A DNA stretch of 41,531 nucleotides from NCBI GenBank assembly GCA_003551305.1, contig PUMJ01000080.1, forward strand, positions 1 through 41,531. Direction: 5' to 3'. Positions within the stretch are counted from its first letter, which is position 1, and each line of letters starts with the position of its first letter. Below are positions 23,709-40,653 of the stretch, one piece after another. Under the pieces are notes generated by a model. That model was not told where the DNA came from and did no database searches. It saw nothing but the letters and a program-made list of their open reading frames with translations. The DNA comes from Candidatus Brocadiaceae bacterium. Lineage in GTDB: Bacteria; Planctomycetota; Brocadiia; SM23-32. A program made the translations under genes and the position numbers.

Positions 23709-23846
23709 TGCTGACTCCAACCGGCGAGAAGGGGGAAGACGGCCGCGGCCCTTTTGAACCCGCAAAGGCTAACGCAAACGCCCGCCCGTGGCAACGTACA
23801 CTGCCGGCGGGCCCTGAAGCGCCCCCCGACCGGCGCGAGCACCACT

Positions 23847-23875
23847 TTGACAGCGCGCCCCGAAAAGCGTACCTT
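23847..23875 (+). promoter_or_regulatory. Candidate sigma-70 promoter for the GH2-like gene
   Basis: A perfect TTGACA (23847-23852) is followed after 17 bases by TACCTT (23870-23875), a poor -10. Transcription would begin near 23882, leaving a leader of about 60 bases before the ATG at 23942. Confidence 0.4.
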
Positions 23876-23941
23876 GCAGGGCACACGGATGGGAAGATGC
23901 GGGGAACACCGCTCACGTTCAACTTGTCGGAGAACCGTCGC

Positions 23942-26900: not shown

Positions 26901-28564
26901 GCTTCAGGGTCGCCGTGGTCCACGCCACGGCCGAGAACCTGCGGCGGCTCAACGCCATGCCTCAGGAGGTGTCGGCATTCCAGGATGCCGGCGGCTGGAT
27001 CATGCTCTCCGGGCTCGAGCCCGACGGCCTGGAGGAGTTCAACAGCCTGGCGGGACAGGACCGCATGATACGCCCGTTCCGGCTGGAGCGCGTCAGGTTC
27101 GAGGAGCGCGAGCACTCGCTCGGCATCACACTGACCAACGCCGACGTCAACCTCATCAGCAACGAACACATAATCCACGGGCGCATGTGGCCCAGCAAGC
27201 ACACCTTCAGTTACGTGATAGATGGGCCGGACTTCGCCCCCTTCAGCCGCCCGCCCGGCGCGCCGGAAGACCACTTCGAGTACGAGCCCACCCGCAATGA
27301 CCACGACCCCTTCAACTACGTCAACAACCTGTTCAACAGGCTGAGCTGGCGCTGCATCCGCCAGATATGGTGGGAAGGGCCCGACCCGATGGACCTGACC
27401 TTCGAGCTGCGCCGTCCCGACACCGTCGCCGCCGTGCGCCTCTGGAACAACGACAACTACAGCACCATCAGGGACATGGACATCCTGTTCGATGGCGACG
27501 AAGCCACGGCCGTCAGCATCGTCTTGCCCGACGGCGATGCCATGACCGAGGTCAAACTGCCCGAGCCGCGCCAGGTGGAGAGCACCATCACCCTGCGGCT
27601 GAGAACCCGCCGCGAGTGGCGCCAGCCGAACCTGGTCGGCATCGAGAACGTCCAGTTCCTCAGGCCACAGAGCCCCGAGGGCGCCGTTTACCTCGACAGT
27701 GTCGGCGGGCTGGTCGCCTTCCCCCGCGGCGAGGGGGGCGTCTTTTTGAACCAGGTCAAGTTCATGGAAGAGGAGCCCAATGCCGAGAACGCCGACAAGA
27801 AGCGCAGGCTCGTGGGCACGCTGCTGCAGAACATGGGTGTCGGCGTTGCCTCGCAGGTCGCCGTGCCGGGCGTGAACGTCCGCTACGAGCCGGTGGACAT
27901 CATGGGGCACGCCAATCAGTACAGGGACACAAGCTGGGTAGGGGAGAACATCTGGTTCGGGCAGGCCGACAGGCATCTGGGCGCGCTGGAGAGCCGGGAG
28001 GGCACGGTCGAGCTCGCCGACGTCGCCTACCAGTTGGTCCACTTCCGCACGGCCCCCAGCCATGACTGCATTATGCTGGCGGGCTCGGGCGCGCCGGGCC
28101 GGTTCCCGCAGGAGGTGCGCGACATCCCGGTGGACCGGGAGTGCGACCTGCTGTTCTTCCTCCACACGGCGAACGTGACGGAACCGGTAACCGCCGCAGA
28201 ACGCGACCGCATGACCGCCAGGCGGGAGCGGGACCGCTTCCAGCGGCCGAAGGTCATGGAGTACGTGCTCAACTACACCGACGGCCGGAGCGAGTCGGTG
28301 CCGGTGGTGCTGGAACAGCACATCAACCACTGGCTGCAGGAAGAACCGCAGGACCTCCAGGGCGCACGCCTGGCCTGGACGCACCGGTTCGAGGACGGCA
28401 CCTACGGCGCGCTCTACAGCATGCAGGTGCCCAACCCGCGCCCCGACGTGGCCATCGAGAGCATTGACGTGGTGGTGGCCACCGACGGGCAGGGCAACCC
28501 CGTGGATCGCGCCACTCCCGCCGTGCTGGCCATCACAACGGGCCGCGTGGTGGGGACCGAGTGA
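23942..28564 (+). CDS. Large secreted GH2-like multidomain glycoside hydrolase
   Basis: This 1540-residue exported protein has a signal peptide at 1-21 (SLVVAALALCPLAAAQ). The N-terminal half matches glycoside hydrolase family 2 architecture: a jelly-roll sugar-binding domain (about 36-220, with HYLHFAGTNWIVGVFVNGEFVG), an Ig-like domain (about 235-340, ending FGFREVTIEG) and a TIM barrel (about 345-640). Glu477 in LENE is the likely acid/base, after Asn476, and Glu580 in PVWIGES the likely nucleophile. The second half is unusual: two Rossmann/GATase-like segments (about 785-850 and 985-1040), a discoidin-like module (about 1150-1245), and a beta-rich C-terminal domain (about 1270-1540). GGAG lies nine bases before the ATG. 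A heparinase II/III-like gene follows on the same strand. The substrate is unknown. Confidence 0.8.
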   Translation: MKAFWSLVVAALALCPLAAAQYAAEEFELPAPPRPGARSTVELSGTWEIARYDDPDPDTNRFDAVSELPPAEDLEWMEAPVPASVRNMEGMEGCHRFIYRTHVRVPDYGEDRGHYLHFAGTNWIVGVFVNGEFVGDHTSVWIPWYMDISDHVRPGEINELTLAIKSPWYGFETEVTNPLGEPGPGTLREFWDRESLGRPSTVPYGAKGDGNGNDYGIVNPVYLHCVGAAYTEDVFVKPSVQHERLETDVTVRNTTGRERTFQVRSEAVNDATDEVERTFDAVAVTVPAHSTVTTTVDGSWEDPKLWWPEPNPNLYRLRTTLTEAGEPVDVHEQLFGFREVTIEGPAFKLNGVRYNLWGWWGLSERIETAEQYAEQLRREGTRFNRFFSHIALRNFLPAQEDRLEYYDRHGISGAQASMIEGMGVHYVLSYLVDDPETGGQKLVLNEPVWRNFERHMAQIAKAYRNHPSVLMYSLENEVVYINAMNFHGWVAHTGISFDEYMTMHEEAMAEVARAAQQYDDTKPYVVSGAGDLSGRLPIICWHYPRGSVDWYPENAYTLERVAQKVSRWPWEREKPVWIGESTFGDTLNLGTYAVGDRAFASHRESQRGKAVFQRMLFGGYRWAGVGWSCCGNYAEFDEVRDMLSPLTVVPRKQTHRLYPGRENELLFKVLNDTFSDEPVTFEWSYEVDGQRIAGERVELDITPGYGVQQTLVIPAPRAEQRLDGALRLRVSQPGAETYEEERSVPVMPDVRGLAVDVPVTVLDRSGELAGYLDNIGVDFRRIESLRELQGADGLLLVGPDSLTAAEAYGPALKTAAGRGLRVIVLEQENPVAGEGLPVSISTTEHYGGYVHPQGMATPIFRDLGETDLIDWAGDFPTYTKAYRKPVSGARSLAHCGPQLPYSVLLEVPCGRGYLVLSQLRIGRKLGVDPAAEILLRNLVEHYGTARPSTDAAAVFAPGDPLLRENLDATGLLLEETDSLREALDPARFRVAVVHATAENLRRLNAMPQEVSAFQDAGGWIMLSGLEPDGLEEFNSLAGQDRMIRPFRLERVRFEEREHSLGITLTNADVNLISNEHIIHGRMWPSKHTFSYVIDGPDFAPFSRPPGAPEDHFEYEPTRNDHDPFNYVNNLFNRLSWRCIRQIWWEGPDPMDLTFELRRPDTVAAVRLWNNDNYSTIRDMDILFDGDEATAVSIVLPDGDAMTEVKLPEPRQVESTITLRLRTRREWRQPNLVGIENVQFLRPQSPEGAVYLDSVGGLVAFPRGEGGVFLNQVKFMEEEPNAENADKKRRLVGTLLQNMGVGVASQVAVPGVNVRYEPVDIMGHANQYRDTSWVGENIWFGQADRHLGALESREGTVELADVAYQLVHFRTAPSHDCIMLAGSGAPGRFPQEVRDIPVDRECDLLFFLHTANVTEPVTAAERDRMTARRERDRFQRPKVMEYVLNYTDGRSESVPVVLEQHINHWLQEEPQDLQGARLAWTHRFEDGTYGALYSMQVPNPRPDVAIESIDVVVATDGQGNPVDRATPAVLAITTGRVVGTE

Positions 28565-28657: not shown

Positions 28658-30529
28658 ATGCGGACGTGGCTCCACCTGCTGGTATGTGTGGTGGCGTGGC
28701 TGTGCGCCGTGGTGCCCGTCTCGGCGGAGGAGAGCCGGGAGCGGCCCCACCTGTTTTTCGGCCCCGAGGACATACCCCGGTTGCAGGAGAGGATGGAGCA
28801 CCCGGAACTCGCCTGGCTGTGGCCAAACGTGGAGCGCGCGGCGAGAAACCCCGCCCGCAGTGCCCCCAACTGGTCGAACCACACCATGTGCGCCGGCCTG
28901 GCCTGGCAGCTCACGCGTGACAGGCGTTACGCCGAGCCGGCCATCGAAGTGGCGATGGAAATCGCCGCCATCCCCGGGCCATGGTCCCCCACAACCTCAT
29001 TTCTGAAACACGTTGACCTGACCATACCGCGCAGGACTCTGCCGCTGGCGTACGCTTATGACATGCTCTACGACGCTATGAGCGAGCAGCAGCGCGAGAC
29101 CATCCGGGAGGCGCTTCGTGAGAAAGTCTTCGCCCCCTACATGAGGGCGCTGGCGCACTTCGATGAGGAGACCAACCGGTTCGTGGACGACGACGGCCAC
29201 TGGGAGTGGTGGAGCACGGCCTACTTCAACTGGAACGCATGGGTAAACGGCGACATCGGCCTGGCGGCCCTGGCCACCCTGGGCGACATCCCGGAGGCCG
29301 AGCAAGTGGTGGAGAAGGCGCGCGCCTCGCTCCGGTTCATGCACCCGGAGTTCGACCGGGGCGAGGACGAAAGCGGCGGATGGGACGAGGGGCCGATGTA
29401 CTGGCAGGGCAGCATCTCGCACCTGACACGTTTCTACGCCGCCCTTGAGCGCGTGAAAGGCACCGACGACGGCTTCTTCGACCTGCCGGGCGTGGCGAAG
29501 ACCATGTGGTACGGCATAGACTTCACCACACCGGACGGCCGCTGGGTCACCTTCCAGAACGCCCCTAACCGGCGCATCATTGACCCGGCCAGCGTGCTCT
29601 ACTACCTGGGCAAACGTTACGAAGAGCCGCAGTTCGTGCGGCACCTGGACGTCAACGCCGCCTCGTGGCACCCGATGCCGTTCGGCATCCTGTGGCGGCC
29701 GCCCATCCCCACTCCGGAGCCGCCCCGGCGCCCGCCGACCGCATGGTATCGGGACATAGACTGGGCGGTCCTGCGCTCCGGGGACCTGTTCGTCCCTTTC
29801 AAGGCCGGGGACCTGGGTTCGAACCACCGCCACTTCGACGCCAACAACGTCCTGATCTGGGTGCGCGGGGAGCGGATGCTCGACTACCCCGGCCGCGGCA
29901 TCACGGATACCGAACTCCACAACTGCGTGCTGGTCAACGGCCGGGGTCAGCGTCCGCTGGGCAGTCGCAGCGCCGGAGTGCGCACCGACTCCTACGCGCC
30001 CATCCTGGCCTGCGGCACCGTCGGCGGGGAACCGTACGTCGTGGCCGACGCGGCGGCCTGCTACGAGGAACCCGTCCTCCGCGCCCAGCGCCACGTGGTG
30101 CTCGCCGAGGAGGGCTACGTCGTCGTGCTGGACGACCTGCTCGTGCCCGACACGGCGGAGTTTACGGCCAACTGGCACACGCTGCACGAACTGACCAAAG
30201 GGCCTGGTCACAGCGCCGTCATCGAGAGCGAGGGCGTGCGACTCCACGTCGTGCCCATCTCCGACGCCCCTATCCGGACAGAAACCGCCATCGACCCGGA
30301 GGACCGGCGGGTGTTCCGGGTCAGCCTGTCCGGCCGGCCGAGGAGGCAGTGGCGCGTCTTCACCGTCTTTGCGCCGGACGAGCAGCCGCGGGCGAGCGCC
30401 TTCTTCGAGAACGACAGCGTCGTCCTGAGCGTGAACGGCAGGGCATTCCCCTTCGAGCCACACCCCGACGGGGGCCTGCGCTACGCGGCCGGGCCCTACG
30501 AAGAGGCCCCGCCCATCGGCGAGTGGTGA
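28658..30529 (+). CDS. Secreted heparinase II/III-like polysaccharide lyase
   Basis: This 623-residue protein has a signal peptide (LLVCVVAWLCAVVPVSA, cleavage near residue 23). Residues ~30-340 form an alpha/alpha toroid with family-like residues: the N-W-N-A-W segment (191-195, Asn193) and the E-G-P-M-Y segment (Glu244 to Tyr248, a candidate catalytic Tyr). Residues ~365-610 form the beta-sheet part with NHRHFDANN (His390, His392, Asp394), the H-x-H-x-D pattern of heparinase II/III domains. Such lyases cleave uronic-acid-containing polysaccharides by beta-elimination; heparin itself is not implied. The gene is 93 bases after the GH2-like gene and probably shares its transcript. Its stop lies 15 bases from the convergent permease gene. 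Confidence 0.82.
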   Translation: MRTWLHLLVCVVAWLCAVVPVSAEESRERPHLFFGPEDIPRLQERMEHPELAWLWPNVERAARNPARSAPNWSNHTMCAGLAWQLTRDRRYAEPAIEVAMEIAAIPGPWSPTTSFLKHVDLTIPRRTLPLAYAYDMLYDAMSEQQRETIREALREKVFAPYMRALAHFDEETNRFVDDDGHWEWWSTAYFNWNAWVNGDIGLAALATLGDIPEAEQVVEKARASLRFMHPEFDRGEDESGGWDEGPMYWQGSISHLTRFYAALERVKGTDDGFFDLPGVAKTMWYGIDFTTPDGRWVTFQNAPNRRIIDPASVLYYLGKRYEEPQFVRHLDVNAASWHPMPFGILWRPPIPTPEPPRRPPTAWYRDIDWAVLRSGDLFVPFKAGDLGSNHRHFDANNVLIWVRGERMLDYPGRGITDTELHNCVLVNGRGQRPLGSRSAGVRTDSYAPILACGTVGGEPYVVADAAACYEEPVLRAQRHVVLAEEGYVVVLDDLLVPDTAEFTANWHTLHELTKGPGHSAVIESEGVRLHVVPISDAPIRTETAIDPEDRRVFRVSLSGRPRRQWRVFTVFAPDEQPRASAFFENDSVVLSVNGRAFPFEPHPDGGLRYAAGPYEEAPPIGEW

Positions 30530-30544: not shown

Positions 30545-31423
30545 CTACAGCCGCGCAGGCTGGCGCACGTCCATGGCGTCGCGCAGGGCATCGCCGGTCA
30601 GGTTGAAACCGAGCACGGTGAGCGTGATGGCCAATCCCGGCCACGTCATCATGTGCGGGGCGACCAGCAGGAAGTCCCGGCCGCGGTTGAGCATGGCGCC
30701 CCACTCCGGTGTCGGCGCCTGCACCCCCAGGCCCAGGAAGCTGAGCGCCGACGCCGCCAGCACCATGTGCCCCAGCCCAAAGGTGGCCATCACCAGCAGT
30801 GGTGAGATGCAGTTGGGCAGGATGTGGCGCACCAGCAGGCGCACCGGCCCCGCCCCCAGCGCCCGCGCCGCCTCCACGTAGGGCTCCGTCCTGGCCGAAA
30901 GCACCGACCCCCGCGCGATGCGGGCGTAGGCCGTCCAGTGCACCGCCGCCAGCGCCAGCATGGCGTTGAACAGGCTCGGCCCCAGTACCCCGGCTATCAC
31001 GATGGCCAGCACGAGCCCGGGAAAAGCCAGCATCGCGTCGACCGCCCCCATGATCAGCCTGTCCGCGGCCCCGCCCGCGTAGCCGGCCACCGCCCCGAGG
31101 ACGGCACCGACCAGGAGGGAGACCGCCACGATGGCCACCCCCGTGCCCACGGAGTAGCGGGTCCCGACCAGCAGGCGGCTCAGCACGCACCGGCCCAGTT
31201 CGTCGGTGCCCAGCGGATAGCGCACCGACGGCGGCTGGAGGCGGCGGCTCACTTCGTCGGCAGCGGGGTCGTTGGGCGCCGCCAGCGGCCCGAGCACAGC
31301 GGCCGCCAGCACACCGCACAGCAGCACGCAGCCGAGGGCGCCGTCCACGCGCCCCGCCATCCTGCGCAGGCCGCTCAACAACGGCATGGCCCGACGCGCC
31401 GCGCCTGTGACGAACTCATGCAC
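30545..31423 (-). CDS. ABC importer permease, DppC/NikC family
   Basis: This 292-residue inner-membrane permease has about six helices, the OppC/DppC-type N-terminal lead, a periplasmic segment with RYPLGTDELGRCVLSRLL (typical of the C subunits) and the cytoplasmic EAA loop (EAARALGAGPVRLLVRHILPN) that docks the ATPase. I chose the GTG at 31423; its frame overlaps the end of the partner permease gene by eight bases, which implies coupling. No OppD/OppF-type ATPase gene follows: the next gene is convergent. The substrate class (peptide, nickel or opine) cannot be told from the permease. Confidence 0.85.
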   Translation of the reverse strand: MHEFVTGAARRAMPLLSGLRRMAGRVDGALGCVLLCGVLAAAVLGPLAAPNDPAADEVSRRLQPPSVRYPLGTDELGRCVLSRLLVGTRYSVGTGVAIVAVSLLVGAVLGAVAGYAGGAADRLIMGAVDAMLAFPGLVLAIVIAGVLGPSLFNAMLALAAVHWTAYARIARGSVLSARTEPYVEAARALGAGPVRLLVRHILPNCISPLLVMATFGLGHMVLAASALSFLGLGVQAPTPEWGAMLNRGRDFLLVAPHMMTWPGLAITLTVLGFNLTGDALRDAMDVRQPARL

Positions 31424-32366
31424 CGGCGCCCCCTGCCCCGTAGTGGATGCGCGGGTCGAGCCACGCGTAAACGACGTCCACCAGCAGGTTGACCAGCACA
31501 TAGACGCCCGCAAAGAGCAGCACGCACCCCTGCACCACGGCGAAGTCCCGCGCGTAGACGGAGTTGACCAGCAGCCGGCCGATGCCCGGGCGTCCGAAGA
31601 CCGCTTCCACAATGACCGCCCCTTCCAGCACCCGGCCGAACTGCAGACCCAAAACGGTGACGGTGGGGATGAGGGAGTTCTTCAGGGCGTGCTTCCACAG
31701 GATGGTCCGCTCGCTCAGTCCTCGGGCGCGCGCGGCGCGGATGTAAGGCCGGCTCAGCACCTCGACGGCGCCGGAGCGCATCACACGCGTTGTGAGGGCG
31801 GCCATGCCGGTCCCGAGCGTAACGGCCGGGAGCACCAGACGCGCCAGACCGCCGCTGCCGTAGGAAGGCAGCCAGCCCAGCCACAAGCTGAAGACGAGGA
31901 TCAGCAGCAAGGCCAGCCAGAAGTTGGGCACCGAGACGCCGAGCAGCGCCCCCCCGCGCGCGGCGACGTCCAGGGGTCGGCCCCGGTGCGAGGCGCACAC
32001 CGTGCCGACCGGCACGCCCAGAAGCAGGCTCACCAGCAGAGCGGCCACGGCCAGTTCGACTGTCGCCGGCAGGCGGCCCAGTATCTCGGCAGCGGCCGGC
32101 TCGCCGCTGACCAGGGAACGGCCCAGGTCGCCCCGCGCCGCCCGTGCCCCCCATCGGACGTACTGCACCGGCAGCGGCGCCTCCAGACCCTCCTGCTGAC
32201 GGACCTGCTCGACCTGTGCCTCTGTGACGTGCTCCCCGAACCTGCCGATGGCTATCAGCTCGGCCGGGTCGCCGGGCGCCAGGCGCATAAAGGCGAAGGT
32301 GATGAAGCTGACCACGACGGCGACCAGCACCAGGAAGCCCAGCCGTCGCACCACGTAGGCAAGCAC
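31416..32366 (-). CDS. ABC importer permease, DppB/NikB family
   Basis: This 316-residue permease begins MLAYVVRRLGFLVLVAVVVSFITF, the classic start of the B subunits, followed by RLAPGDPAE. It has about six helices, and the EAA loop reads YIRAARARGLSERTILWKHALKNS, then FGRPGIGRLLVNSVYARD, all typical for the family. The GTG at 32366 has GGGGAG seven bases upstream. It forms a heterodimer with the following C-type subunit. It lies 20 bases after the lipoprotein receptor gene. Confidence 0.88.
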   Translation of the reverse strand: MLAYVVRRLGFLVLVAVVVSFITFAFMRLAPGDPAELIAIGRFGEHVTEAQVEQVRQQEGLEAPLPVQYVRWGARAARGDLGRSLVSGEPAAAEILGRLPATVELAVAALLVSLLLGVPVGTVCASHRGRPLDVAARGGALLGVSVPNFWLALLLILVFSLWLGWLPSYGSGGLARLVLPAVTLGTGMAALTTRVMRSGAVEVLSRPYIRAARARGLSERTILWKHALKNSLIPTVTVLGLQFGRVLEGAVIVEAVFGRPGIGRLLVNSVYARDFAVVQGCVLLFAGVYVLVNLLVDVVYAWLDPRIHYGAGGAGA

Positions 32367-32386: not shown

Positions 32387-33973
32387 TCAGTCCAGCGTCA
32401 CCGAGTGCAGCCCGAGCCAGGGCCCCTCCGCGCTGATGCGATAGCCGCTGACGTTCCCGCGCGCGGCGACCACTTTCTCCTGGTGGGCGAGGTAGAAGGC
32501 CGGCAGCCGCTCCATCGTCTCCCGCTGAAGGCGGTGGTAAAGCTCGCGGCGCGCTTCTTCGTCCGGCGCAGCGTCCGCGTCCTCGACCAAACGATCGTAT
32601 TCCTCGTCGGCAAAGTGGCTGAACGGGTTCGCCGAATGGTGGAGGAAAAAGTGCCGGGGATAGCCGCCCCAGACGTAGTAACCGGTGCGCAACAGCATAT
32701 CGAAGTCGCCCGCCCTCTCGGCCCTCCGGAACGCGCCGCTCTCAAGCCGCTGCACCTCCACCTGCATGCCCACGCGCGCAAGCGCTGCCTGCAGGGCCTC
32801 TGCCATGATGGGAAAGCGGTCCCCGGCGCCGACGTTAGGGTTCTGCGTGACCAGCAGCCGCACCCGCAGGGGCCGGCCGTCCCGCTGCGCCACGTCACCG
32901 CCGGATACTTCCCAGCCCGCCTCCCGCAGCAAGGTGCGCGCCCTCGAGAGGTTATGGCGCAAGGGCACCAGATCGACGTCAGTGTACTGGAGCACCGGCG
33001 AGAGGGGACGGCCTTCGGCAGCCCGCCCCACCCCGGCCAGCACGTCCGCCACCAGCGCCTCGGTGTCCAGGGCATGGGCCACCGCGCGCCTGACGCGCAG
33101 ATCGTCGAACGGCTCCCGCGCGGTGTTGAACTGCACGAAGTCCGTGAAAGTGGACAGCACCCGATGCACCTCGACGGCGGGATGCTCGATAAGCCGGGAC
33201 ACGTCGGCGTCGGGCACTTTGACCGCCATGTGGAGTTCGCCGGCCTGCAGCGCGATGAGCCGGGCGGCGGCGTCCGGGATGACCTGGAAGACCACGCGCT
33301 CCACGCCCGCCGGCCCCTCCCGGTAGTCCGGGTTACGCCGCAGCACGATCCGCTCCCCCCTGGAATGACTCTCGAAGATGAAAGGCCCCGTGCCGATGGG
33401 ACGCACAGGGCGGCCTTCCCGGTCCAGGCCGTCGGGGCTCATGACCGGCCAGCCCACGTGCGTCAGGTAGTGGGGCAGCGCCATGGGCCGGCGCAGGTGA
33501 AATCGGACGGTCAGCTCATCCACAACCTCCACTGACTCTACCGGGCCGAGGACGGTCCGTCGGGCGTACGTGTCCGGGCCGTAGGAGAAAGCGACCGCCT
33601 CGGCCGTCAGGGGCTCGCCGTTGTGGAAGCGCACGTCGGGGCGCAGCCGGAACTCCCACGTGCGACCCCCGTCAGGCGAGTGCCAGGAGAGCGCCAGCCC
33701 TGGCACCATTTCCAACTCCGGCGTCAGGCGAACCAGTGTCTCGAAGACCTGCGACCAGACGAAACGGGCGTCTCCGTCGGGGAACTGCATCGGCGACCAG
33801 TGCTCCACGTCCGTGCCGATGCCGACCTGAAGCGTCTCGGCGACCTCTTCCCGCGGACCGCAGCCTGCCCCCAGTGCCATGACCGCCAGCAGGAGGGCAA
33901 ACCCCGCTGTGAACCCGGCGGCCGTCCGCAACTTTGCCTTCTGCGCACCGGCGTGCCGCGGAAGCGTTCTCAC
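32387..33973 (-). CDS. Lipoprotein solute receptor of an ABC importer (SBP family 5)
   Basis: This 528-residue protein has an N-terminal hydrophobic segment and lipobox LGAGC (Cys38). Family 5 signatures follow: GLALSWHSPDGGRTWEFRLR, the segment VRFHNGEPLTAEAVAFS and IGTGPFIF. The family binds peptides, nickel or other ligands for Dpp/Opp/Nik importers. Residues 441-453 hold four histidines (H441, H445, H446, H453), which could take part in metal or metal-complex binding, although the spacing also occurs in peptide receptors. The GTG start overlaps the CooT-FmdE stop by four bases. The order is CooT-FmdE, receptor, B permease, C permease. Confidence 0.87.
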   Translation of the reverse strand: MRTLPRHAGAQKAKLRTAAGFTAGFALLLAVMALGAGCGPREEVAETLQVGIGTDVEHWSPMQFPDGDARFVWSQVFETLVRLTPELEMVPGLALSWHSPDGGRTWEFRLRPDVRFHNGEPLTAEAVAFSYGPDTYARRTVLGPVESVEVVDELTVRFHLRRPMALPHYLTHVGWPVMSPDGLDREGRPVRPIGTGPFIFESHSRGERIVLRRNPDYREGPAGVERVVFQVIPDAAARLIALQAGELHMAVKVPDADVSRLIEHPAVEVHRVLSTFTDFVQFNTAREPFDDLRVRRAVAHALDTEALVADVLAGVGRAAEGRPLSPVLQYTDVDLVPLRHNLSRARTLLREAGWEVSGGDVAQRDGRPLRVRLLVTQNPNVGAGDRFPIMAEALQAALARVGMQVEVQRLESGAFRRAERAGDFDMLLRTGYYVWGGYPRHFFLHHSANPFSHFADEEYDRLVEDADAAPDEEARRELYHRLQRETMERLPAFYLAHQEKVVAARGNVSGYRISAEGPWLGLHSVTLD

Positions 33974-34575
33974 GCGCCCTCCTCCAGTTCGAACAGTTCC
34001 TCTTCGCCCATCTCCATGGCCCGGTGCGCGGCTTCGACGGCTGATTCCTCGTCAGTCATGTCCCGGACCAGCTTCTGCGCGGCCTCGCTCAGGCGCACGC
34101 GCAACGTTCTGCCTTCGGCCGTGAAAGCGGCCGCGGGGCCGTCCTCGCCCGGCGGTTCGATGCTGATGTTGCCTTTTCCCAGCGTGGCGCCGGTGCTGAA
34201 CTGCAGGCCGTCCACCATGCAGGAGACCGGCGTCTCCGCACCGGTCAAGGCTGTGACGCTGAGGTCGAAGTGCCCCTCGACCCCGAGGCGCCGACGGGCC
34301 AGCAGGCCCATGCGCAGTCCGAAGACCAGATACGGCCCCAGATGGCCGTGGAACCCGGCGGCGCGGCGCACCAGAGCCGGCAGTTCATCTTCGCGCTCCA
34401 GCACCAGGCGGTGCATCACAAGGTCCGCATACAGCAGGTGCGCCGGCACCGCGCGCTCGTTGCCGTCCACGTCCTTCAACTGCAACGAACCGTCCTGCAG
34501 CTCCAGCCAGCCCACGTCCTTCATCACGAGCTGTTCCCGCTCCCCTTCAACGACGTACACGTTCGACTGACACAT
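33970..34575 (-). CDS. CooT-FmdE fusion protein, predicted nickel or metal handling
   Basis: This 201-residue protein joins two families. Residues 1-60 (MCQSNVYVVEGEREQ to LVMHRLVLE) match the CooT family of small Ni-binding proteins, with the ligand Cys2 right after the start. Residues ~72-175 match an FmdE domain: GFHGHLGPYLVFGLRMG (74-90), ETPVSCMVDGLQFSTGATLG (114-133) and KGN. In FmdE proteins the HGH motif and a later cysteine often line a metal site; here His76, His78, Cys119 and Asp122 are kept, while the HGHxC cysteine is Gly80. AAGGAG lies nine bases before the ATG. It heads an operon with a Dpp/Nik-type importer, which supports a link to metal uptake or delivery. The exact metal is unproven. 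Confidence 0.7.
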   Translation of the reverse strand: MCQSNVYVVEGEREQLVMKDVGWLELQDGSLQLKDVDGNERAVPAHLLYADLVMHRLVLEREDELPALVRRAAGFHGHLGPYLVFGLRMGLLARRRLGVEGHFDLSVTALTGAETPVSCMVDGLQFSTGATLGKGNISIEPPGEDGPAAAFTAEGRTLRVRLSEAAQKLVRDMTDEESAVEAAHRAMEMGEEELFELEEGA

Positions 34576-34629: not shown

Positions 34630-34657
34630 ATTGTAACACGAAAACAGAATTCGTAAA
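34630..34657 (-). promoter_or_regulatory. Candidate sigma-70 promoter for the CooT-FmdE operon
   Basis: On the minus strand TTTACG (34657-34652) precedes TACAAT (34635-34630, 5/6) by 16 bases. Transcription would start near 34623, about 48 bases before the ATG at 34575. The surrounding AT-rich stretch stands out in this GC-rich window. Confidence 0.45.
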
Positions 34658-34671
34658 ACGCACATGCCGGG

Positions 34672-34700
34672 TTGACACGACCGCCCTCCCCTGCGAACAT
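34672..34700 (+). promoter_or_regulatory. Candidate sigma-70 promoter for the methyltransferase gene
   Basis: A perfect TTGACA (34672-34677) lies 17 bases before GAACAT (34695-34700), a weak -10. Transcription near 34707 would leave about 45 bases before the preferred start at 34753. This is a reason not to take the in-frame TTG at 34672 as the start codon. Confidence 0.35.
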
Positions 34701-34752
34701 AAGGCGTACGCGGTGCACACGATTCCTCGGGCATACAGTGGAGGGCGGAGAG

Positions 34753-35349
34753 TTGAGCGGAGGGCAGGGGCAGGCGGGACGTTCGTTCGGGGAGAGGCTG
34801 CGGGATGGTGCGCTTTTCTGCGCGCACTTCCTAACGGATCCATTCGGCCTGTCGACCCCCCTGTCGTCTTCACCCCGCATCGCGGCCACCATAGCGCGGG
34901 AACTGGTCGCGCACAACGCGCACCGGGTGGTGGAGCTGGGGGCGGGCGTCGGGGCGCTCACCGAGGGCATCCTCGAGGCCCTGGGGCCGGAAGACACACC
35001 GCTGTGCGTCGAGTTGAAACCGGCCTTTTGCCGGCGGCTCGAGGAGCGCTTCGATGGGCGTGCACACGTCGTGGCCGGCGACGCCACCCAACTGCCCGTG
35101 CTGGTGGCGGGCACGCCGTGGGAACGTCCGCACGCGGTTGTCTGCTCGGTGCCGCTGATAACGTCAACCGCACGCGACATCTGCCGCACCATCCGCGACG
35201 TGCTCCCCTCCGACGGCCTCTACCTCCAACTGGCCGTCCGGCGGGGGCCGGTCAGCGAATTCTTCCGCGTCGAGAAGACCTACTTCTTCCCGCTGAACCT
35301 GCCGCCCGAGCGGCTTCACCGGGCCTACCCACTTGAGCAGACTCAATAG
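34753..35349 (+). CDS. SAM-dependent methyltransferase, PmtA-like
   Basis: This class I methyltransferase has about 198 residues. The SAM-binding glycine loop is ELGAGVG (61-67), with the acidic post-I position in CVELKP and a V-V-C-S-V-P-L segment in place of motif IV, as in phospholipid N-methyltransferases (PmtA/COG3963). The lead FLTDPFGLSTPLSSSPRIAATIA also matches that group, which methylates phosphatidylethanolamine or related lipids. KsgA-type rRNA methylation is less likely. The start is uncertain: I prefer TTG at 34753, with GGAGG about nine bases upstream; the frame is open to 34672. It ends overlapping the stop of the convergent baeRF gene by seven bases. Confidence 0.62.
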   Translation: MSGGQGQAGRSFGERLRDGALFCAHFLTDPFGLSTPLSSSPRIAATIARELVAHNAHRVVELGAGVGALTEGILEALGPEDTPLCVELKPAFCRRLEERFDGRAHVVAGDATQLPVLVAGTPWERPHAVVCSVPLITSTARDICRTIRDVLPSDGLYLQLAVRRGPVSEFFRVEKTYFFPLNLPPERLHRAYPLEQTQ

Positions 35350-36497
35350 CGGTAGACCGCGGCGACCTCGTGACCGTTGGGCATCTGCTCGGTCTGCAGG
35401 GCGAAGACGCTGCCTCCGTGCAACAGGGTCTGTAAAGCCGCGCGGTTCAGCAGGTCGTCGTCGCCGCCCTCCTGCCGATAGTGCAGGTAGACCAGGCCCG
35501 TCTCCGGGTTGTAGTTGCCCCACTCGTGCTTTTCCAGGTCCGTCAGCAGGATCTCGACGCGCCCCCTGCCGGAGGCCTCGAGCACTTCGTCCAGGTTGCT
35601 GGAGGCGCGGTCGGTCTCCTCGAACCTCCTGTAGGCGCCGACGGCCTCTTCGCGGACCTTTTTGAACATGGGACCGACAGTCTGCCATCCGGCCTCTTTC
35701 AACTCCTCGGACCGCGTCCTGTCCGGGTTCCCATCGATGCCCTCCTCGACCAGATTGTGGTAGGAGTTGGCCTCGCGGTAGAGCGCGCGGATTTCCTTGA
35801 CCCCGGCCAGCACCAGCGGCGCGTGCTCGTCAGCCAGGACCTTCTTGACCCCATTCTCCACCTGGTGGAGGAACTCGCGCACGATCTTTTTGTGTACGGC
35901 CTTGTCCGAATCGTCGGCCTGGGTGTGGAAAACCATGCCGCCGGAAGGGCCGCCCCCGCTGCGGTACTGCACCCGCCCGTCGGAGACGACGTCATACTGC
36001 TGCGCCTCCGCCAGGCTGGTGGGCGTCTCCTGCGGCAAGGCGACCTCGTGCAGGCTGTGGCGGGTGCACTGCAGCAGGCGCACGTCATTCTGGCTCAGCG
36101 CCAGCACGTAAAAGCGGCCGTCCCCCGTCAACAGCGGCAGCAGCGGCTTGATGTGGAACTCGTCGCTGACCACCACCAGTTCCTGGAAGCGGGACGGCAC
36201 ACGATAGTAATGGAAAACCTCGGGCGACAAGAACAGGGCCAGCCCGTCGCTGTCCTGCTTCCACTGCCGCACGTTATCCAGAAAGGTCTCGGTCGGCTTC
36301 AGGAAATCCTCGATCTGCGGTCCCTTCATGCCGGTCTCGCTCAGACGCTTCTCCACTTCACGCAATACGTTCTTGAGCCGGATGCGGTTCTGCTCCCTCT
36401 CCGGTCCGCCCCGTTCGAGCGGGGTGAACATCGAGACGCATGGTTCCTGACGGTGATGGGCCAGCACGCTCAGATCGTCACGCGTCAGCAGCTTCAT
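35343..36497 (-). CDS. baeRF family 3-like protein (archaeo-eukaryotic release-factor fold)
   Basis: This 384-residue cytoplasmic protein resembles bacterial eRF1-like proteins (baeRF family 3). The N-terminus reads PCVSMFTPLERGGPE (19-33), then QNRIRLKNVLREVEKRL, the usual lead. The middle has DGRFYVLALSQNDVRLLQC (about 126-144) and the C-terminal part LADEHAPLVLAGVKEIRALYREA and KHEWGNYNPETGLVYL. The family is predicted to act in translation, for instance ribosome rescue or stress control, from its fold; biochemical evidence is thin. The ATG at 36497 has AAGGAG eight bases upstream and a promoter is predicted 87 bases away. It is monocistronic here. Confidence 0.72.
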   Translation of the reverse strand: MKLLTRDDLSVLAHHRQEPCVSMFTPLERGGPEREQNRIRLKNVLREVEKRLSETGMKGPQIEDFLKPTETFLDNVRQWKQDSDGLALFLSPEVFHYYRVPSRFQELVVVSDEFHIKPLLPLLTGDGRFYVLALSQNDVRLLQCTRHSLHEVALPQETPTSLAEAQQYDVVSDGRVQYRSGGGPSGGMVFHTQADDSDKAVHKKIVREFLHQVENGVKKVLADEHAPLVLAGVKEIRALYREANSYHNLVEEGIDGNPDRTRSEELKEAGWQTVGPMFKKVREEAVGAYRRFEETDRASSNLDEVLEASGRGRVEILLTDLEKHEWGNYNPETGLVYLHYRQEGGDDDLLNRAALQTLLHGGSVFALQTEQMPNGHEVAAVYRY

Positions 36498-37108
36498 GCC
36501 ACAGACTCCTTCCGAAGTCCCGTTACCGGGCGGAATACCCCTGCGGCCACCCGCCGGCAGCGGCTCCACCCCTCAAGAGCGCATTATAACGCCCCCCGCC
36601 CGCCGCGTCTATCTTTACGTTTCGTCGGGCGCATCCCGCGCCGCCCCAGCCGGGAATGTCAGCGCATTAGACCCCGGTAACCGCAGAGGAACGCAGATGA
36701 ACCTGGAGAGCTCGCGGCCAGAGGCGCTCCTTCAGCATGTCAACGAGCACAAATGGATTCGTTTCGCAAAAAGTCCCCCGACGCGCCCGCATCGGACAGT
36801 AATGCCCGAACGGACCCCCTGACACCGGCCCGGTCTTTCGGCAACATCACGTAAGAGCTCAGGGTCTCGGGCGCGCGGGGATCTGCCGGTACCCCTCCCC
36901 GGCCAGGGGGACGAACGATTCCCTTCTCGCTGTCCGAACCCGGCGACCGGCTTCTCCTGCCGGGGCGTCAACTCGCAATGGCTGTCGCGCGGGCCTGCAC
37001 CTATACTATACGTTCATAGGGGACGCGTCAAGCATTTCCCCGCTGGGCCCCGGCAAGCAACACCTCGGCCGCCTCTAAGCCCCCGGCCGCGCCCGCCGTC
37101 CCCCCGCC
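36498..37108. other. 611-bp gap without a convincing gene
   Basis: This is the only gene-free stretch above 300 bases. It holds the baeRF promoter (36583-36611), a tiny open frame (36697-36822, 41 codons, AGAGGA upstream) that I do not trust, several short GC hairpins such as CCCCT/AGGGG near 36894-36912, and a second weak minus-strand promoter match (TTGACG, 15-base spacer, TATAGT at 37031-37005). No tRNA, riboswitch or small RNA is recognisable. Confidence 0.6.
36583..36611 (-). promoter_or_regulatory. Candidate sigma-70 promoter for the baeRF-like gene
   Basis: On the minus strand TAGACG (36611-36606, 4/6) is followed after 17 bases by a perfect TATAAT (36588-36583). The predicted start near 36576 leaves a leader of about 80 bases. 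Confidence 0.55.
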
Positions 37109-39397
37109 TCAGCAGCCAACCCGCACGGTGAATTCCCCGCTGGCCCGAACGGTCAGAACGTGCATCTCCGTTCCTTCGACCGGCTTCACGTGGGCACGCA
37201 CGTGCGCGCCCTCCCCGTCGGTGACCGTCAGGACGGCGGGCTCGGGCAGGTTCTCAAACACCAGGTCCGCCCGCGTGGCCGACGCCATCCGGTAGAGGCG
37301 GTGTCCCTCAGCCTGCTCCACGGAGAAGAGCCGGGCGTCCGACCCGTACAGCCGCGGGCCGCCGCTGTAGTCGCCCCGCTCTATCTCCAGGCGGTTCGGC
37401 CCACTGCGCAGCAGCGCCTCAGGTATCTGCAAGGTACCCACCAGCAGCCGCCCATTCACGCGAACCGCACGGACCCCGTCACCGTCCCCTTCGGCGCGGG
37501 CGTCAACCAAACTGGTGCGGAACCGGTAGCCGCTCACGCTGTCCACCAGCTCGCTCGCCCGCGCGGCCAGTCCCATGGGAAGGCCGGTCAGGATGCGGGA
37601 GCCGACGGCGTTCAGCAGGCTGCCGGCAGAGAAAGGCAGCGCCCGCCAGCCCTCGGGCCGGTGCGCGTACTCGGTCAGCGCCCCCAGCATGGGGTACTTC
37701 TTCGTCTCGGTCAGGGCGTCGGCCAGCTCATCCTCCAGCATGGCGCGGAACTCGCCCGTGCTCAGCCCGTATTCGGCCAGCACCTCGGCCAGGGTGTTCC
37801 ACGGGCAGTAGCCGTAGGAACCCCCTTCAGGCCACGTCTCCCGGACCATCCGCAGCGACCGCAGCGCGGTGTTAAGGTCGGGGCGAAACGGCCCCTCCGT
37901 CTGCACCCACGTGTAGCCCCACGGGTTGTCGTCGTCCATCCACTCGCAGGTTCCGTCCGTCTTCTGCGCATACATGGAGCGGTAGATGCCGGTGTCGGGG
38001 TCAGTAAAGGTCTCGGCCAGCACGCACTCCATGCGGTCGCCCCACTCGCGGTAGCGTTCCCGCGCGGGTTCATCCATCTCGGGGCTTTCGGCCAGCAGTA
38101 TCTCCATCATGCGGAAGACGTTGTACATGTGGCCGTTCTGGCGCAGGGCGTGGGAGCGGAGAGTGCCTGAGCCGGCGCCGCCCCGCTGCTCCTGCATGCG
38201 GCCGTTGACGCTGTCGTAGCCGAAGTAGTCCGAGCCGGCCAGCGTCGTTTCCCCGAAAGTGTCGCTACCGAACATCTCCAGGTCTTCGTCCCAGCGCGTG
38301 GCGATCTGGTAGTCCACGGCGTCCACCAGGGGGCGGAGCGTCTCGGCGCGCAGGCACCAATCGTCGCCGGTGGTCTGGTAGAGTCGGAACAGGCAGTGCG
38401 CGGCGTGGTAGAGGCCGTCCTCCTCGCGCTTGCTCCAGCGCGTGCCGACCATCTGGAGGAACTCGGGGCAGAGTCGGCCGTCCAGAGTGCCGAACGAGGA
38501 GGGATTCTCCAGCAGGAAGGGTGTCCATATCCGGAGCATCTCGGGGTTTCCGGCGCGCGCCATCTGGGTGGCGGTCACGCTGCCGTCCCGCACCCAGATG
38601 AGGTGGTAGATGCGGTTCAGGGCGCCGAAGCAGGCCCCGCCCTCGTCCAGCCCGGAGTAGACGATCCGTCGGTTCAGGTCCAGCACCCGCTGCAACTCGT
38701 CGTCAATCACCTCCAGCCGGGCGCGGCGGAGCAGAGGCGCGATCGTTCGCTCCGTGTGGGCGATGAGTTCCTCGCGAGAGGCCCCCTCCAGCGCCACCAG
38801 CGCGCGACGGACCTGGTAGAGGTTCTCCTCGCCCCCGAGCAGAACCACGTCGCCGCCGGTGAGCTGGAGCACGTGCCGGCCGTCTTCCAGGACGCGGTAG
38901 CGGTTCTCCTCGAAGCTGTCGAACGCCACGAAGGAGACTATGCCCTCGCCACGGTCGGCGAACTCCTCGTAAAGGAGGCCGTCCTCGACCGCGAACTCCC
39001 GGTGCGGCAGAAAGGTGACCACCAGCGGGCAACGCGCGGAAATGGCAAAGGCGTTCTCATCCCCGATGTTGAGCAGGGAGATGCTGTTGCGCGCCCCGCC
39101 CGGAGCTTCCGTGCGGACCGAGGTATGGAAGGGGTCGTAACGGAACTCCTGCACGAAGTCGGCCGGTATTTCCGGCAGCTCGGCCTCGGCAAAAAGCGGG
39201 GTATAGATGTCGCGGTTGGAGAAGTTCCGCGCCGGGAAGTCCTTGCGGCGGAACCCGTTGGGCTTGTAGAGCAGTTCCAGCTCGACGAACTGCTCGTGGA
39301 ACAGGGCGGTCAACCGGTTGCCGCACCGGTTCTGCAGGATGATGTTGTGCCGGCCTTCCTCGACCTGCGGCTCGCGCCAGATGCCCCGCGTGACCAT
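37109..39397 (-). CDS. Six-hairpin (alpha/alpha)6 glycosidase-like protein
   Basis: This is a 762-residue protein without a signal peptide, so it is probably cytoplasmic. Residues ~1-230 form a beta-rich N-terminal domain. Residues ~240-640 look like an (alpha/alpha)6 barrel: IYHLIWVRDGSVTATQMARAG is a W-x-R-D-x-S/A-type motif seen in GH15 and in debranching-type enzymes, and KREEDGLYHAAHCLFRLYQTTGD follows. Other markers are CEWMDDDNPWGYTWV and GYCPWNTLAEVL. The last ~120 residues are again beta-rich. It probably hydrolyses an oligosaccharide, but neither the family number nor the substrate is clear. The ATG at 39397 has GGGGAG seven bases upstream. It is downstream of a MocA-type oxidoreductase on the same strand. 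Confidence 0.65.
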   Translation of the reverse strand: MVTRGIWREPQVEEGRHNIILQNRCGNRLTALFHEQFVELELLYKPNGFRRKDFPARNFSNRDIYTPLFAEAELPEIPADFVQEFRYDPFHTSVRTEAPGGARNSISLLNIGDENAFAISARCPLVVTFLPHREFAVEDGLLYEEFADRGEGIVSFVAFDSFEENRYRVLEDGRHVLQLTGGDVVLLGGEENLYQVRRALVALEGASREELIAHTERTIAPLLRRARLEVIDDELQRVLDLNRRIVYSGLDEGGACFGALNRIYHLIWVRDGSVTATQMARAGNPEMLRIWTPFLLENPSSFGTLDGRLCPEFLQMVGTRWSKREEDGLYHAAHCLFRLYQTTGDDWCLRAETLRPLVDAVDYQIATRWDEDLEMFGSDTFGETTLAGSDYFGYDSVNGRMQEQRGGAGSGTLRSHALRQNGHMYNVFRMMEILLAESPEMDEPARERYREWGDRMECVLAETFTDPDTGIYRSMYAQKTDGTCEWMDDDNPWGYTWVQTEGPFRPDLNTALRSLRMVRETWPEGGSYGYCPWNTLAEVLAEYGLSTGEFRAMLEDELADALTETKKYPMLGALTEYAHRPEGWRALPFSAGSLLNAVGSRILTGLPMGLAARASELVDSVSGYRFRTSLVDARAEGDGDGVRAVRVNGRLLVGTLQIPEALLRSGPNRLEIERGDYSGGPRLYGSDARLFSVEQAEGHRLYRMASATRADLVFENLPEPAVLTVTDGEGAHVRAHVKPVEGTEMHVLTVRASGEFTVRVGC

Positions 39398-39428
39398 TGA
39401 TGTGCTCCCCTCGGGTGAAGTTGAGCGC

Positions 39429-39457
39429 ATTATGCGACCGGAAGGCCCGAGGGGCAA
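39429..39457 (-). promoter_or_regulatory. Candidate sigma-70 promoter for the six-hairpin gene
   Basis: On the minus strand TTGCCC (39457-39452) precedes CATAAT (39434-39429, 5/6) by 17 bases. The start would lie near 39422, about 25 bases before the ATG, so this gene may be transcribed apart from the oxidoreductase upstream. Confidence 0.4.
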
Positions 39458-39533
39458 GCGCGAAAAGGCACAACCACCGTCCGGCGCCGTCACAGATGTG
39501 AGGCACGCACAAGCACGGACCGGCGCGGGCCGC

Positions 39534-40640
39534 TCACAGCTCGATGACCTTGCCGGGCCCTTCGGCGAACGCCTCGAAGATGCGCGTGCAGTGCATGATG
39601 TCGTCGCTGTGGCTCTTGGCGGGGCGGCGGTCTTCCAGGATTGCGCGGGCGAACTCCTCTATCTCGCCCCAGAAGCCCAGCGAGAACAGCCCCTTGCTGT
39701 AAAGCTGGCCGAGGGAACACTCCGGCTCCCAGTAAGCGGTCGCGCTTTCGGGCGGGCCGGTGAAGTGGCTGGGCATGTTGCCGTAGCCCTGCCCCTCGGG
39801 CCTCGACGGGCCGCGGGCGTAGAAGACGCGGGTGTTGTTCTCCACCAGCACGTGGTGGCCGCGCTCGCCCACCACCATCGTGCGCTCTATGCCCCCGTTG
39901 TAGGCCTGACCGTGGGTGAGCGACATGCTGCCCACAAGGCCACTGTCGTAACTGAACGTGGCGACGGCCGCGCTGCGCGGGCTGCGCTCGTAGTAAAGGG
40001 TCTGCGGCATGCCGCCGAACAGCACCAGCGCCGAAGCGATGTGGCAGATGTGGTCCAGGAACCACTTGGCCGAGTCCACGTTCTCGCCGTCAATGTAGCG
40101 GCGGACCTCGTCGGCCGGCGGCACGTTGACCGGACGCTGCAGGGTTATAAGCTGCGGAGTGCCGAAGTCCTCCCGCTGCATGAGCTCGACGGCCTTCTCG
40201 TTGGCGGGGAAGAACATGGACTTCAGGCCGGCCATGCAGAACTTGCCGCTGTCGCGCTCGGCCTCCTGCATCTGTTCCACCTCCTCGCAGGTCGTGGCCG
40301 GCGGCTTCTCCATCCACACGTGCACCCCGGCCCGCAGGCAGGCGATCGTCAGCTCCGGATGCGTCAGGTGGTTGTTCTTGTCGTAGCCGGTCGAGATGAA
40401 AACGGCGTCGAGGTCTTCTTTCTCGAGCATCTCCCGGACGCTGGTGTAGCAGGCGTCCGCCGCGAAGTGCGCGGCGAACTCGCGGGCCTTGTCCGCGTCC
40501 AGGTCGCAGGTGGCCACCAGTTCCACCGGCGTGAACTGAAAGGTTGGGAACAGGTTGCGGAAGGCGTGCGAGCCGCACCCGATGAAGCCCGCGCGGACCT
40601 GCGGTTCGTCCAGCAGTTCGCCTCTGAATCCGATGCGCAT
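39534..40640 (-). CDS. Gfo/Idh/MocA-family oxidoreductase
   Basis: This 368-residue protein is a NAD(P)-dependent sugar or cyclitol oxidoreductase by family. It has the Rossmann motif AGFIGCGSHAF (17-27), the DAVFISTGYDKNN segment and the conserved E111-K112-P113 with its catalytic lysine (VWMEKPPA). A D-H-I-C-H-I segment in the C-terminal domain fits the family's active site. The ATG at 40640 has GGAGA five bases upstream. It starts 13 bases after the end of the next gene on the same strand, so the two are an operon. The sugar substrate is not determined; many relatives act in catabolism of inositol or sugar acids. Confidence 0.85.
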   Translation of the reverse strand: MRIGFRGELLDEPQVRAGFIGCGSHAFRNLFPTFQFTPVELVATCDLDADKAREFAAHFAADACYTSVREMLEKEDLDAVFISTGYDKNNHLTHPELTIACLRAGVHVWMEKPPATTCEEVEQMQEAERDSGKFCMAGLKSMFFPANEKAVELMQREDFGTPQLITLQRPVNVPPADEVRRYIDGENVDSAKWFLDHICHIASALVLFGGMPQTLYYERSPRSAAVATFSYDSGLVGSMSLTHGQAYNGGIERTMVVGERGHHVLVENNTRVFYARGPSRPEGQGYGNMPSHFTGPPESATAYWEPECSLGQLYSKGLFSLGFWGEIEEFARAILEDRRPAKSHSDDIMHCTRIFEAFAEGPGKVIEL

Positions 40641-40653
40641 GACGTCTCCACGG

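What the first reader, a model, noticed from the sequence alone, without database searches (positions are those of the whole stretch)
33970..34575. CooT nickel-binding domain fused to an FmdE domain
Seen: one uninterrupted 201-residue frame, with residues 1-60 like CooT (Cys2 kept) and residues ~72-175 like FmdE (HGH 76-78, Cys119, Asp122). Known: CooT is a small Ni(II)-binding protein, and FmdE-type domains are associated with metal- or cofactor-related functions. Inference: a single protein may take nickel or a related metal from the adjacent importer and pass it to a target. I do not know a described role for this combination, so it is my best candidate for an undescribed system here.
Basis: partly seen in the sequence, partly recalled or inferred. 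Interest (0 to 1): 0.72.

Follow-up and report, generated by a model that had tools for sequence, protein, structure and literature searches.

The report
Fused nickel-handling protein in importer operon
A Planctomycetes-type bacterium has joined two small proteins that usually sit side by side near nickel genes (CooT and an FmdE-like protein) into one, as the first gene of a nickel-type importer operon, which points to an undescribed route by which microbes hand imported nickel to their nickel enzymes.

Summary
One 201-codon gene on the MINUS strand (34575 to 33970) encodes Pfam CooT (residues 1-60) joined to FmdE (75-195), both far above cut-off; a confident AlphaFold model matches CooT and FmdE crystal structures. 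It has a promoter-like site and ribosome-binding site, and its stop overlaps the start of a NikA/DppA-type binding lipoprotein followed by two nickel-type permeases, so it opens an importer operon. The genome also encodes CODH/ACS, [NiFe]-hydrogenase and NikR.
Relatives carry the case. In a family-level relative the halves are adjacent genes split by one in-frame stop. Elsewhere they sit together beside NikR, TonB/FecCD, CbiM-type ECF, HypA/HypB or [NiFe]-hydrogenase genes. The FmdE subtype here (HGHLGP; Gly replaces a metal-binding Cys) lies without CooT in CODH/ACS-LarB operons, ZnuA/ABC-3 importers and next to NikR in several phyla. Best reading: a cytoplasmic nickel receiver/relay, a rare fusion of a widespread, apparently undescribed nickel gene pair.
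Nickel handling is strongly supported by context; metal binding, transfer direction and a joint metal site are untested. Close rivals: nickel store/sensor, or an enzyme acting on the imported nickel chelate.

The parts
33970..34575 (-). CooT-FmdE fusion gene (201 aa), first gene of the operon
34396..34575 (-). CooT domain, residues 1-60, with Cys2
   Evidence: Pfam PF10133 50.2 bits; Foldseek 6fan TM 0.94-0.96 by target, 5n76 0.79-0.83
33991..34353 (-). FmdE domain, residues 75-195, HGHLGP subtype; His76, His78, Cys119, Asp122 kept, Gly80 in place of the canonical Cys ligand
   Evidence: Pfam PF02663 78.5 bits; Foldseek 2glz TM 0.70 by target, 2gvi; conservation counts
34630..34657 (-). sigma-70-like promoter TTTACG-16-TACAAT with extended -10 TG, upstream of the fusion; AAGGAG ribosome-binding site just before the ATG
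   Evidence: 1 found, 0.0 expected in shuffles
32387..33973 (-). NikA/DppA-type substrate-binding lipoprotein; its GTG start overlaps the fusion's TGA stop by 4 nt
   Evidence: PF00496 271.5 bits; best NCBIfam NikA TIGR02294 202.5 bits, below its 393 cut-off; junction read
31416..32366 (-). NikB-type permease
   Evidence: NCBIfam Opp2B 'nickel ABC transporter permease' 361.5 bits, over cut-off 350
30545..31423 (-). NikC-type permease; start inferred at the GTG overlapping the nikB stop
   Evidence: NCBIfam Opp2C 'nickel transporter permease' 315.3 bits, over cut-off 300; junction

Best explanation
The protein is a cytoplasmic nickel receiver and relay that works with the nickel-type ABC importer encoded directly behind it. 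Shown: the two domains, the operon, the linkage of both domains (fused, adjacent or alone) to nickel genes in many lineages, and the presence of nickel enzymes in the genome. Inferred: Ni2+ (probably as a small chelate, as for NikA/DppA-type binding proteins) enters through the importer, energised by ATPases encoded elsewhere; the FmdE core, through His76/His78/Cys119 in its groove, takes the ion; the CooT half, through Cys2 at a dimer interface, holds it and passes it to the CODH/ACS C- and A-cluster maturation machinery (CooC) and/or to the hydrogenase machinery. Fusing the two keeps donor and acceptor sites at a fixed ratio. Likely both halves form dimers, because solved CooT and FmdE proteins do.
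For: Domains and fold: (pLDDT 95.7, pTM 0.79). Operon with overlapping stop/start codons and nickel-class permeases. Nickel enzymes in the same genome: CooS 659.8 bits (cut-off 478) with CooC-like ATPase, CooF-like ferredoxin, AcsB and CdhD at G000:C5; [NiFe]-hydrogenase large subunit 501 bits; NikR. Rosetta-stone evidence: CooT-TAG-FmdE in one frame in the family relative G341; true fusion in G208 directly upstream of TonB receptor, ZnuA, ABC ATPase and ABC-3 permease, an importer of another family; separate FmdE-CooT in a NikR-FmdE-CooT-TonB-Peripla_BP_2-FecCD-ATPase-CobN cluster in G039; in Bacillota DUF3842-FmdE-CooT or DUF3842-CooT-FmdE followed by CbiM-type ECF genes, or by HypA, HypB and the [NiFe]-hydrogenase small subunit, with CooT there fused to DUF4198, a domain shown to bind Ni2+ with Kd 18 nM (PMC12537917). 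The HGHLGP FmdE subtype alone: of 80 loci, 41 in CODH/ACS operons, most with LarB next door, 18 with ZnuA/ABC-3 importers, 6 with ECF S components, 7 with NikR within 2 kb (about 3e-9 by a rough chance estimate), one between HypA and HypB. Published: CooT binds one Ni per dimer through Cys2, Kd 9 nM (PMC6006190); an FmdE core (2glz) had mixed Zn/Ni occupancy (PMC2954224). CooT-bearing genomes of the phylum mostly carry CooS.
Against: No metal binding or transfer has been measured for this protein. The FmdE site lacks one of the four structurally seen ligands (Gly80). The G208 fusion has Ser instead of Cys2, so the CooT site is not indispensable in all fusions; that genome also lacks a detectable CooS, though it is only 82% complete. 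The importer is not proven to carry nickel: NikA, TIGR NikB and NikC equivalog cut-offs are not reached, and no ATPase gene lies in the operon. The family relative G341 has no close NikA homologue, so the importer link is not conserved even in the family. No NikR box of the E. coli type is present in the window.
Confidence: 0.6

Rival explanations
1. Nickel buffer, store or sensor: the protein binds imported nickel and limits toxicity or reports nickel status to the importer, without handing it to enzymes.
For: Position as first gene of an importer operon and frequent NikR neighbourhood fit a homeostasis role; R. rubrum CooT mutants are rescued by extra nickel (PMC6006190), which a buffer would also explain.
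Against: Co-location with enzyme maturation genes (CooC, LarB, HypA/HypB, CODH/ACS, hydrogenase) rather than with efflux genes; no DNA-binding domain; no His-rich storage tail.
Confidence: 0.17
2. The FmdE half is an enzyme: it uses the invariant Cys119 with His76/His78 to cleave or modify the organic ligand of an imported nickel chelate or metallophore, and the CooT half catches the freed nickel.
For: Cys119, Asp122, Thr131 and Gly133 are invariant in all 61 subtype members, with a large groove in solved relatives; an unknown ligand 1.8 A from the equivalent Cys in 2gvi suggested a thioester. Peptide/opine-class binding proteins carry nickel chelates (family knowledge). Loss of the fourth metal ligand leaves an open, catalysis-like site.
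Against: No catalytic activity is known to me for any FmdE protein; the subtype is also found within CODH/ACS operons with no importer, where no chelate is expected.
Confidence: 0.15
3. The protein serves another metal or cofactor (cobalt, zinc, molybdenum/tungsten, corrinoid), as the FmdE name suggests.
For: FmdE was named from molybdenum formylmethanofuran dehydrogenase operons; some solved members bind Zn; ZnuA/ABC-3, CobN and CbiM families also serve Zn or Co.
Against: Repeated NikR, HypA/HypB, LarB, CODH/ACS and [NiFe]-hydrogenase neighbours point to nickel; CooT is a nickel protein.
Confidence: 0.06
4. Accidental fusion without joint function, kept because both halves are translated from one message.
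For: The relative G341 makes the halves separately; 27 of 30 genomes with the FmdE subtype have no detectable CooT.
Against: Both halves keep their conserved residues in the window, the linker is short and ordered in the model, and adjacency of the two genes recurs in other phyla with different orders.
Confidence: 0.02

Closest known systems
CooT (PF10133; Rhodospirillum rubrum 5n76/6y8v, Carboxydothermus hydrogenoformans 6fan)
   Same: N-terminal 60 residues match the whole model over cut-off, Cys2 kept, fold match TM 0.94-0.96 to 6fan
   Different: Known CooT is a free ~65-residue protein, classically in CODH operons; here it is fused to FmdE and sits in an importer operon, while CODH/ACS is on another contig
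FmdE core proteins (PF02663; 2glz, 2gvi, 3d00)
   Same: Same core fold, HGH and the second Cys ligand (Cys119), Asp122
   Different: HGHLGP subtype with Gly for the third ligand; no C-terminal zinc finger; no formylmethanofuran dehydrogenase genes; forms its own well-supported clade apart from HGHxCP proteins
FmdE fusions described in Archaea (with a tRNA methyltransferase domain or a regulator; PMC11237513) and with PF00994 or UPF0066 domains (PMC2954224)
   Same: FmdE joined to another domain
   Different: None of the described partners is CooT
DUF4198 nickel-binding proteins (PMC12537917)
   Same: Nickel-operon proteins next to NikR and TonB genes; in Clostridia-type Bacillota CooT is fused to DUF4198 beside FmdE
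   Different: DUF4198 is described as secreted; not present in the window gene
NikABCDE / peptide-nickel importers
   Same: Binding lipoprotein plus two permeases of the nickel class
   Different: No NikD/NikE in the operon; NikA-equivalog cut-off not met; an orphan OppD/OppF-like ATPase pair lies at G000:C153

Membership tests
CooT (PF10133) | Match to the curated model over its cut-off | tested here: met
   50.2 bits vs 27, full length
CooT (PF10133) | Cys2, the nickel ligand | tested here: met
   M-C at residues 1-2; Cys in 10 of 11 aligned relatives, Ser in the G208 fusion
CooT (PF10133) | Homodimer binding one Ni2+ with nanomolar affinity | not testable with these tools
   needs protein; published for R. 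rubrum (PMC6006190)
CooT (PF10133) | Organism has a Ni-CODH | tested here: met
   CooS/CooC/CooF/AcsB/CdhD cluster at G000:C5
CooT (PF10133) | Gene lies in the CODH operon | tested here: not met
   it lies in an importer operon on another contig; not a strict family criterion
FmdE (PF02663) | Match to the curated model over its cut-off and core fold | tested here: met
   78.5 bits vs 22.9; 2glz TM 0.70 by target
FmdE (PF02663) | Four-ligand metal site His, His, Cys, Cys of 2glz/2gvi | tested here: not met
   His76, His78, Cys119 kept; Gly80 instead of Cys, as in all 61 HGHLGP members. 3d00 also lacks ligands, so this is a functional difference rather than a membership criterion
FmdE (PF02663) | Part of a formylmethanofuran dehydrogenase operon | tested here: not met
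   no such genes seen next to it in the window
Nickel importer NikABC(DE) | Permeases of the nickel class | tested here: met
   Opp2B 361.5/350 and Opp2C 315.3/300; but TIGR02789 and TIGR02790 cut-offs not met
Nickel importer NikABC(DE) | NikA equivalog binding protein | tested here: not met
   TIGR02294 is the best hit, 202.5 vs 393
Nickel importer NikABC(DE) | Two ATPase genes | tested here: inconclusive
   none in the operon; an orphan OppD/OppF-like pair at G000:C153 could serve

The most novel reading that the evidence does not exclude
FmdE-type domains, and the HGHLGP subtype above all, are a general and undescribed class of nickel-handling proteins that link import (NikR-regulated ABC, ECF or TonB systems) to the assembly of CODH/ACS and [NiFe]-hydrogenase in bacteria and archaea; CooT is their partner in a subset, and the window protein shows the pair as one molecule with two cooperating nickel sites.
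Probability: 0.4. Interest if true: 0.78.

Novelty: new variant of a known kind. Interest (0 to 1): 0.6.

Why it matters
FmdE is a family with several crystal structures but no established function, and CooT is a nickel protein whose partner and step are unknown. The fusion and the unfused gene pairs say that the two work together on nickel, and the CODH/ACS-LarB operons say that the FmdE half works there even without CooT. That turns an unknown family into a directly testable candidate for the missing step between nickel uptake and the nickel enzymes of the Wood-Ljungdahl pathway.

Tried and rejected
Chance or mis-assembly fusion: rejected (a second fusion and a stop-separated sister exist). 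A joint site needed because Gly80 removed a ligand: weakened, since the Gly is fixed in single-domain proteins of genomes without CooT. The Gly variant as the mark of the nickel link: not so; the FmdE beside CooT in Bacillota is HGHxCP with extra C-terminal cysteines, likely a zinc finger. A conserved NikABC partner: not found near any of the 80 relatives, nor in G341; other importer families take its place. A canonical NikR operator in the window: none. Inverted repeats upstream of the fusion: none. Literature on FmdE with nickel, NikR, CooT or DUF3842: nothing relevant in the open library, which lacks most subscription journals. NCBIfam has no model that names the fusion. Distances between Cys2 and His76/His78/Cys119 could not be measured because model coordinates are not given.

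Full report
Observation. The interval 33970-34575 holds one open reading frame of 201 codons on the minus strand (ATG at 34575, TGA at 33970-33972). Pfam finds CooT (PF10133) at residues 1-60 and FmdE (PF02663) at 75-195, each covering its model and each far above its curated cut-off. Sequence search of the PDB brings CooT 6fan and FmdE 2gvi and 2glz. One detail changes the picture of the metal site: solved FmdE proteins hold metal with His, His, Cys, Cys (His15, His17, Cys19, Cys55 in 2glz, occupied by a zinc/nickel mixture; PMC2954224). The window has His76, His78 and Cys119 but Gly80.

Anatomy. Upstream of the gene lies a TTTACG-16-TACAAT promoter-like site (34657-34630, minus strand) and an AAGGAG sequence before the ATG. 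The TGA stop overlaps the GTG start of a substrate-binding lipoprotein by four bases; two permeases follow, the second also with an overlapping start. The permeases pass the NCBIfam cut-offs for nickel permeases Opp2B and Opp2C but not those of the stricter NikB/NikC equivalogs; the binding protein's best model is NikA, under its cut-off. No ATPase genes follow; a convergent heparinase-like gene ends the operon. A pair of OppD/OppF-like ATPase genes without permeases lies on contig C153 of the same genome and could serve, whereas the pair on C91 appears to have its own permeases.

The organism. The window is a whole contig of a 3.9 Mb, 90.5% complete assembly; the genome with the other fusion, in the same phylum, is labelled Planctomycetota. 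The genome encodes a CooC-like ATPase, CooS (659.8 bits, cut-off 478), a CooF-like ferredoxin, AcsB and CdhD in one cluster, a full-length [NiFe]-hydrogenase large subunit and NikR. It therefore needs nickel for at least two enzyme systems.

Relatives with both halves. In the same family, G341 has CooT (with Cys2) and FmdE in one frame separated by a single TAG; FmdE has its own ATG shortly after the stop. G208 has a true fusion, 47% identical, with Ser instead of Cys2; it stands directly in front of a TonB receptor, a ZnuA-type binding protein, an ABC ATPase and an ABC-3 permease. The three FmdE parts form one clade with full support, the two fusions being sisters. So fusion once, after the pair existed, is the simplest history; a fusion re-split in G341 is not excluded. 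In G039 the genes are separate in the order NikR, FmdE, CooT, TonB receptor, Peripla_BP_2, FecCD, ATPase, CobN. In a Bacillota sample, 118 of 399 genomes have CooT. Of the 30 best CooT loci two have FmdE next door, and of eleven loci with a longer CooT frame ten do. These operons read DUF3842, FmdE, CooT (or DUF3842, CooT, FmdE), then CbiM-type ECF genes, or HypA, HypB and a [NiFe]-hydrogenase small subunit; the longer CooT is a CooT-DUF4198 fusion. DUF4198 has been shown to bind nickel (PMC12537917). Free CooT genes of the phylum stand next to NikR in three loci.

Relatives with the FmdE half alone. A scan of one genome for each of 84,980 species with the most conserved peptides found 90 relatives, the best 80 kept. 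All carry HGHLGPY; in the alignment all 61 members of the subtype have Gly where all seven HGHxCP proteins have Cys, while both His, Cys119, Asp122, Gln125, Thr131 and Gly133 stay invariant. The two types separate in the tree (99/95). By neighbours within 5 kb, 41 loci are CODH/ACS operons (mostly LarB upstream, CdhD, RACo and CooC-like genes downstream), 18 are ZnuA/ABC-3 importers, 6 have an ECF S component and 15 are unassigned; NikR is within 2 kb in seven loci from Bipolaricaulota, Methanobacteriota, Thermoproteota and UBP4. One unassigned archaeal locus is flanked by HypA and HypB. The LarB call is over the curated cut-off (286 vs 175). The scan was chosen by protein motif, not by context. 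A rough chance estimate for seven NikR neighbours in 80 is 3e-9. The 41 CODH/ACS loci are nearly all Omnitrophota and count as one lineage, not 41 events. Only 3 of 30 such genomes have any detectable CooT, so the FmdE half has a nickel context of its own.

Mechanism. Shown: domains, operon, contexts, enzymes present. From the literature: CooT dimers bind one Ni2+ through Cys2, and cooT mutants of R. rubrum need added nickel to grow on CO (PMC6006190). Inferred: nickel entering through the importer is taken by the FmdE groove and the CooT site and delivered to CODH/ACS or hydrogenase assembly. The order of the two sites, whether they act on the same ion, and whether FmdE is a binder or an enzyme acting on the nickel ligand cannot be told from sequence. 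Because Gly80 is fixed where no CooT exists, the open FmdE site is a property of the subtype; it may take its fourth ligand from a chelate, from another protein or from Cys2.

Known versus new. CooT, FmdE, NikR and Nik-type importers are known kinds. In the open literature held here I found no report of a CooT-FmdE fusion, of the CooT-FmdE gene pair, or of a nickel role for FmdE; the library lacks most subscription journals. Described FmdE fusions have other partners. I file it as a new variant of a known kind (nickel trafficking proteins). The wider claim, that FmdE is a nickel-handling family, is stated as the novel case at 0.4.

Limits. Gene calls in relatives are from a simple script. Most relatives are metagenome-assembled genomes with contig ends inside operons. 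No coordinates were available for the model. Absence of CooS in G208 and of NikA in G341 may reflect incomplete assemblies.

Noticed in passing
L049:9293-9976 and about 40 Omnitrophota loci (e.g. L045, L057, L067, L102): LarB (nickel pincer cofactor biosynthesis, 286 bits vs 175) is encoded inside CODH/ACS operons directly before the HGHLGP FmdE. Whether LarA or LarC is nearby was not tested; why a CODH/ACS operon should carry LarB is unexplained.
   Followed up: partly
L220-L230 (Bacillota), e.g. L226:1883-5258: Conserved order DUF3842, FmdE, CooT-DUF4198, then CbiM-type ECF genes or HypA/HypB/[NiFe]-hydrogenase; DUF3842 has no paper in the library and looks like another nickel-linked unknown.
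   Followed up: partly
L151-L159 (class relatives of the window genome): A Cys2-bearing CooT gene is often followed by a small gene for a protein with an LLPHWIEHNNNH-like motif and a His-rich C-terminus, reminiscent of CooJ; not compared with CooJ.
   Followed up: no
L004:1297-2844, L005:1369-2832, L037:6914-8398: FmdE-like domains at the C-terminus of longer proteins that look (by eye, untested) like secreted nucleoside-hydrolase-fold proteins; in L037 a TonB-receptor-like gene is divergent.
   Followed up: no
L112:1103-1711 (G208): The second fusion has lost Cys2 (Ser) and its genome (82% complete) shows no CooS, as if the CooT site degenerated once CODH was absent.
   Followed up: partly
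window 34672-35349 (+): Divergent small methyltransferase, best but sub-threshold match to ornithine lipid N-methyltransferase OlsG, also weakly rRNA-adenine-dimethylase-like.
   Followed up: no
window 35343-36569 (-): baeRF-family protein, sub-threshold match to a ribosome hibernation factor model.
   Followed up: no
window 37109-39493 (-): 794-residue protein with no Pfam match at E 0.001, next to a GFO/IDH/MocA oxidoreductase (39534-40772) and not far from a GH2-type protein (23690-28564) and a heparinase-like protein (28658-30529).
   Followed up: no
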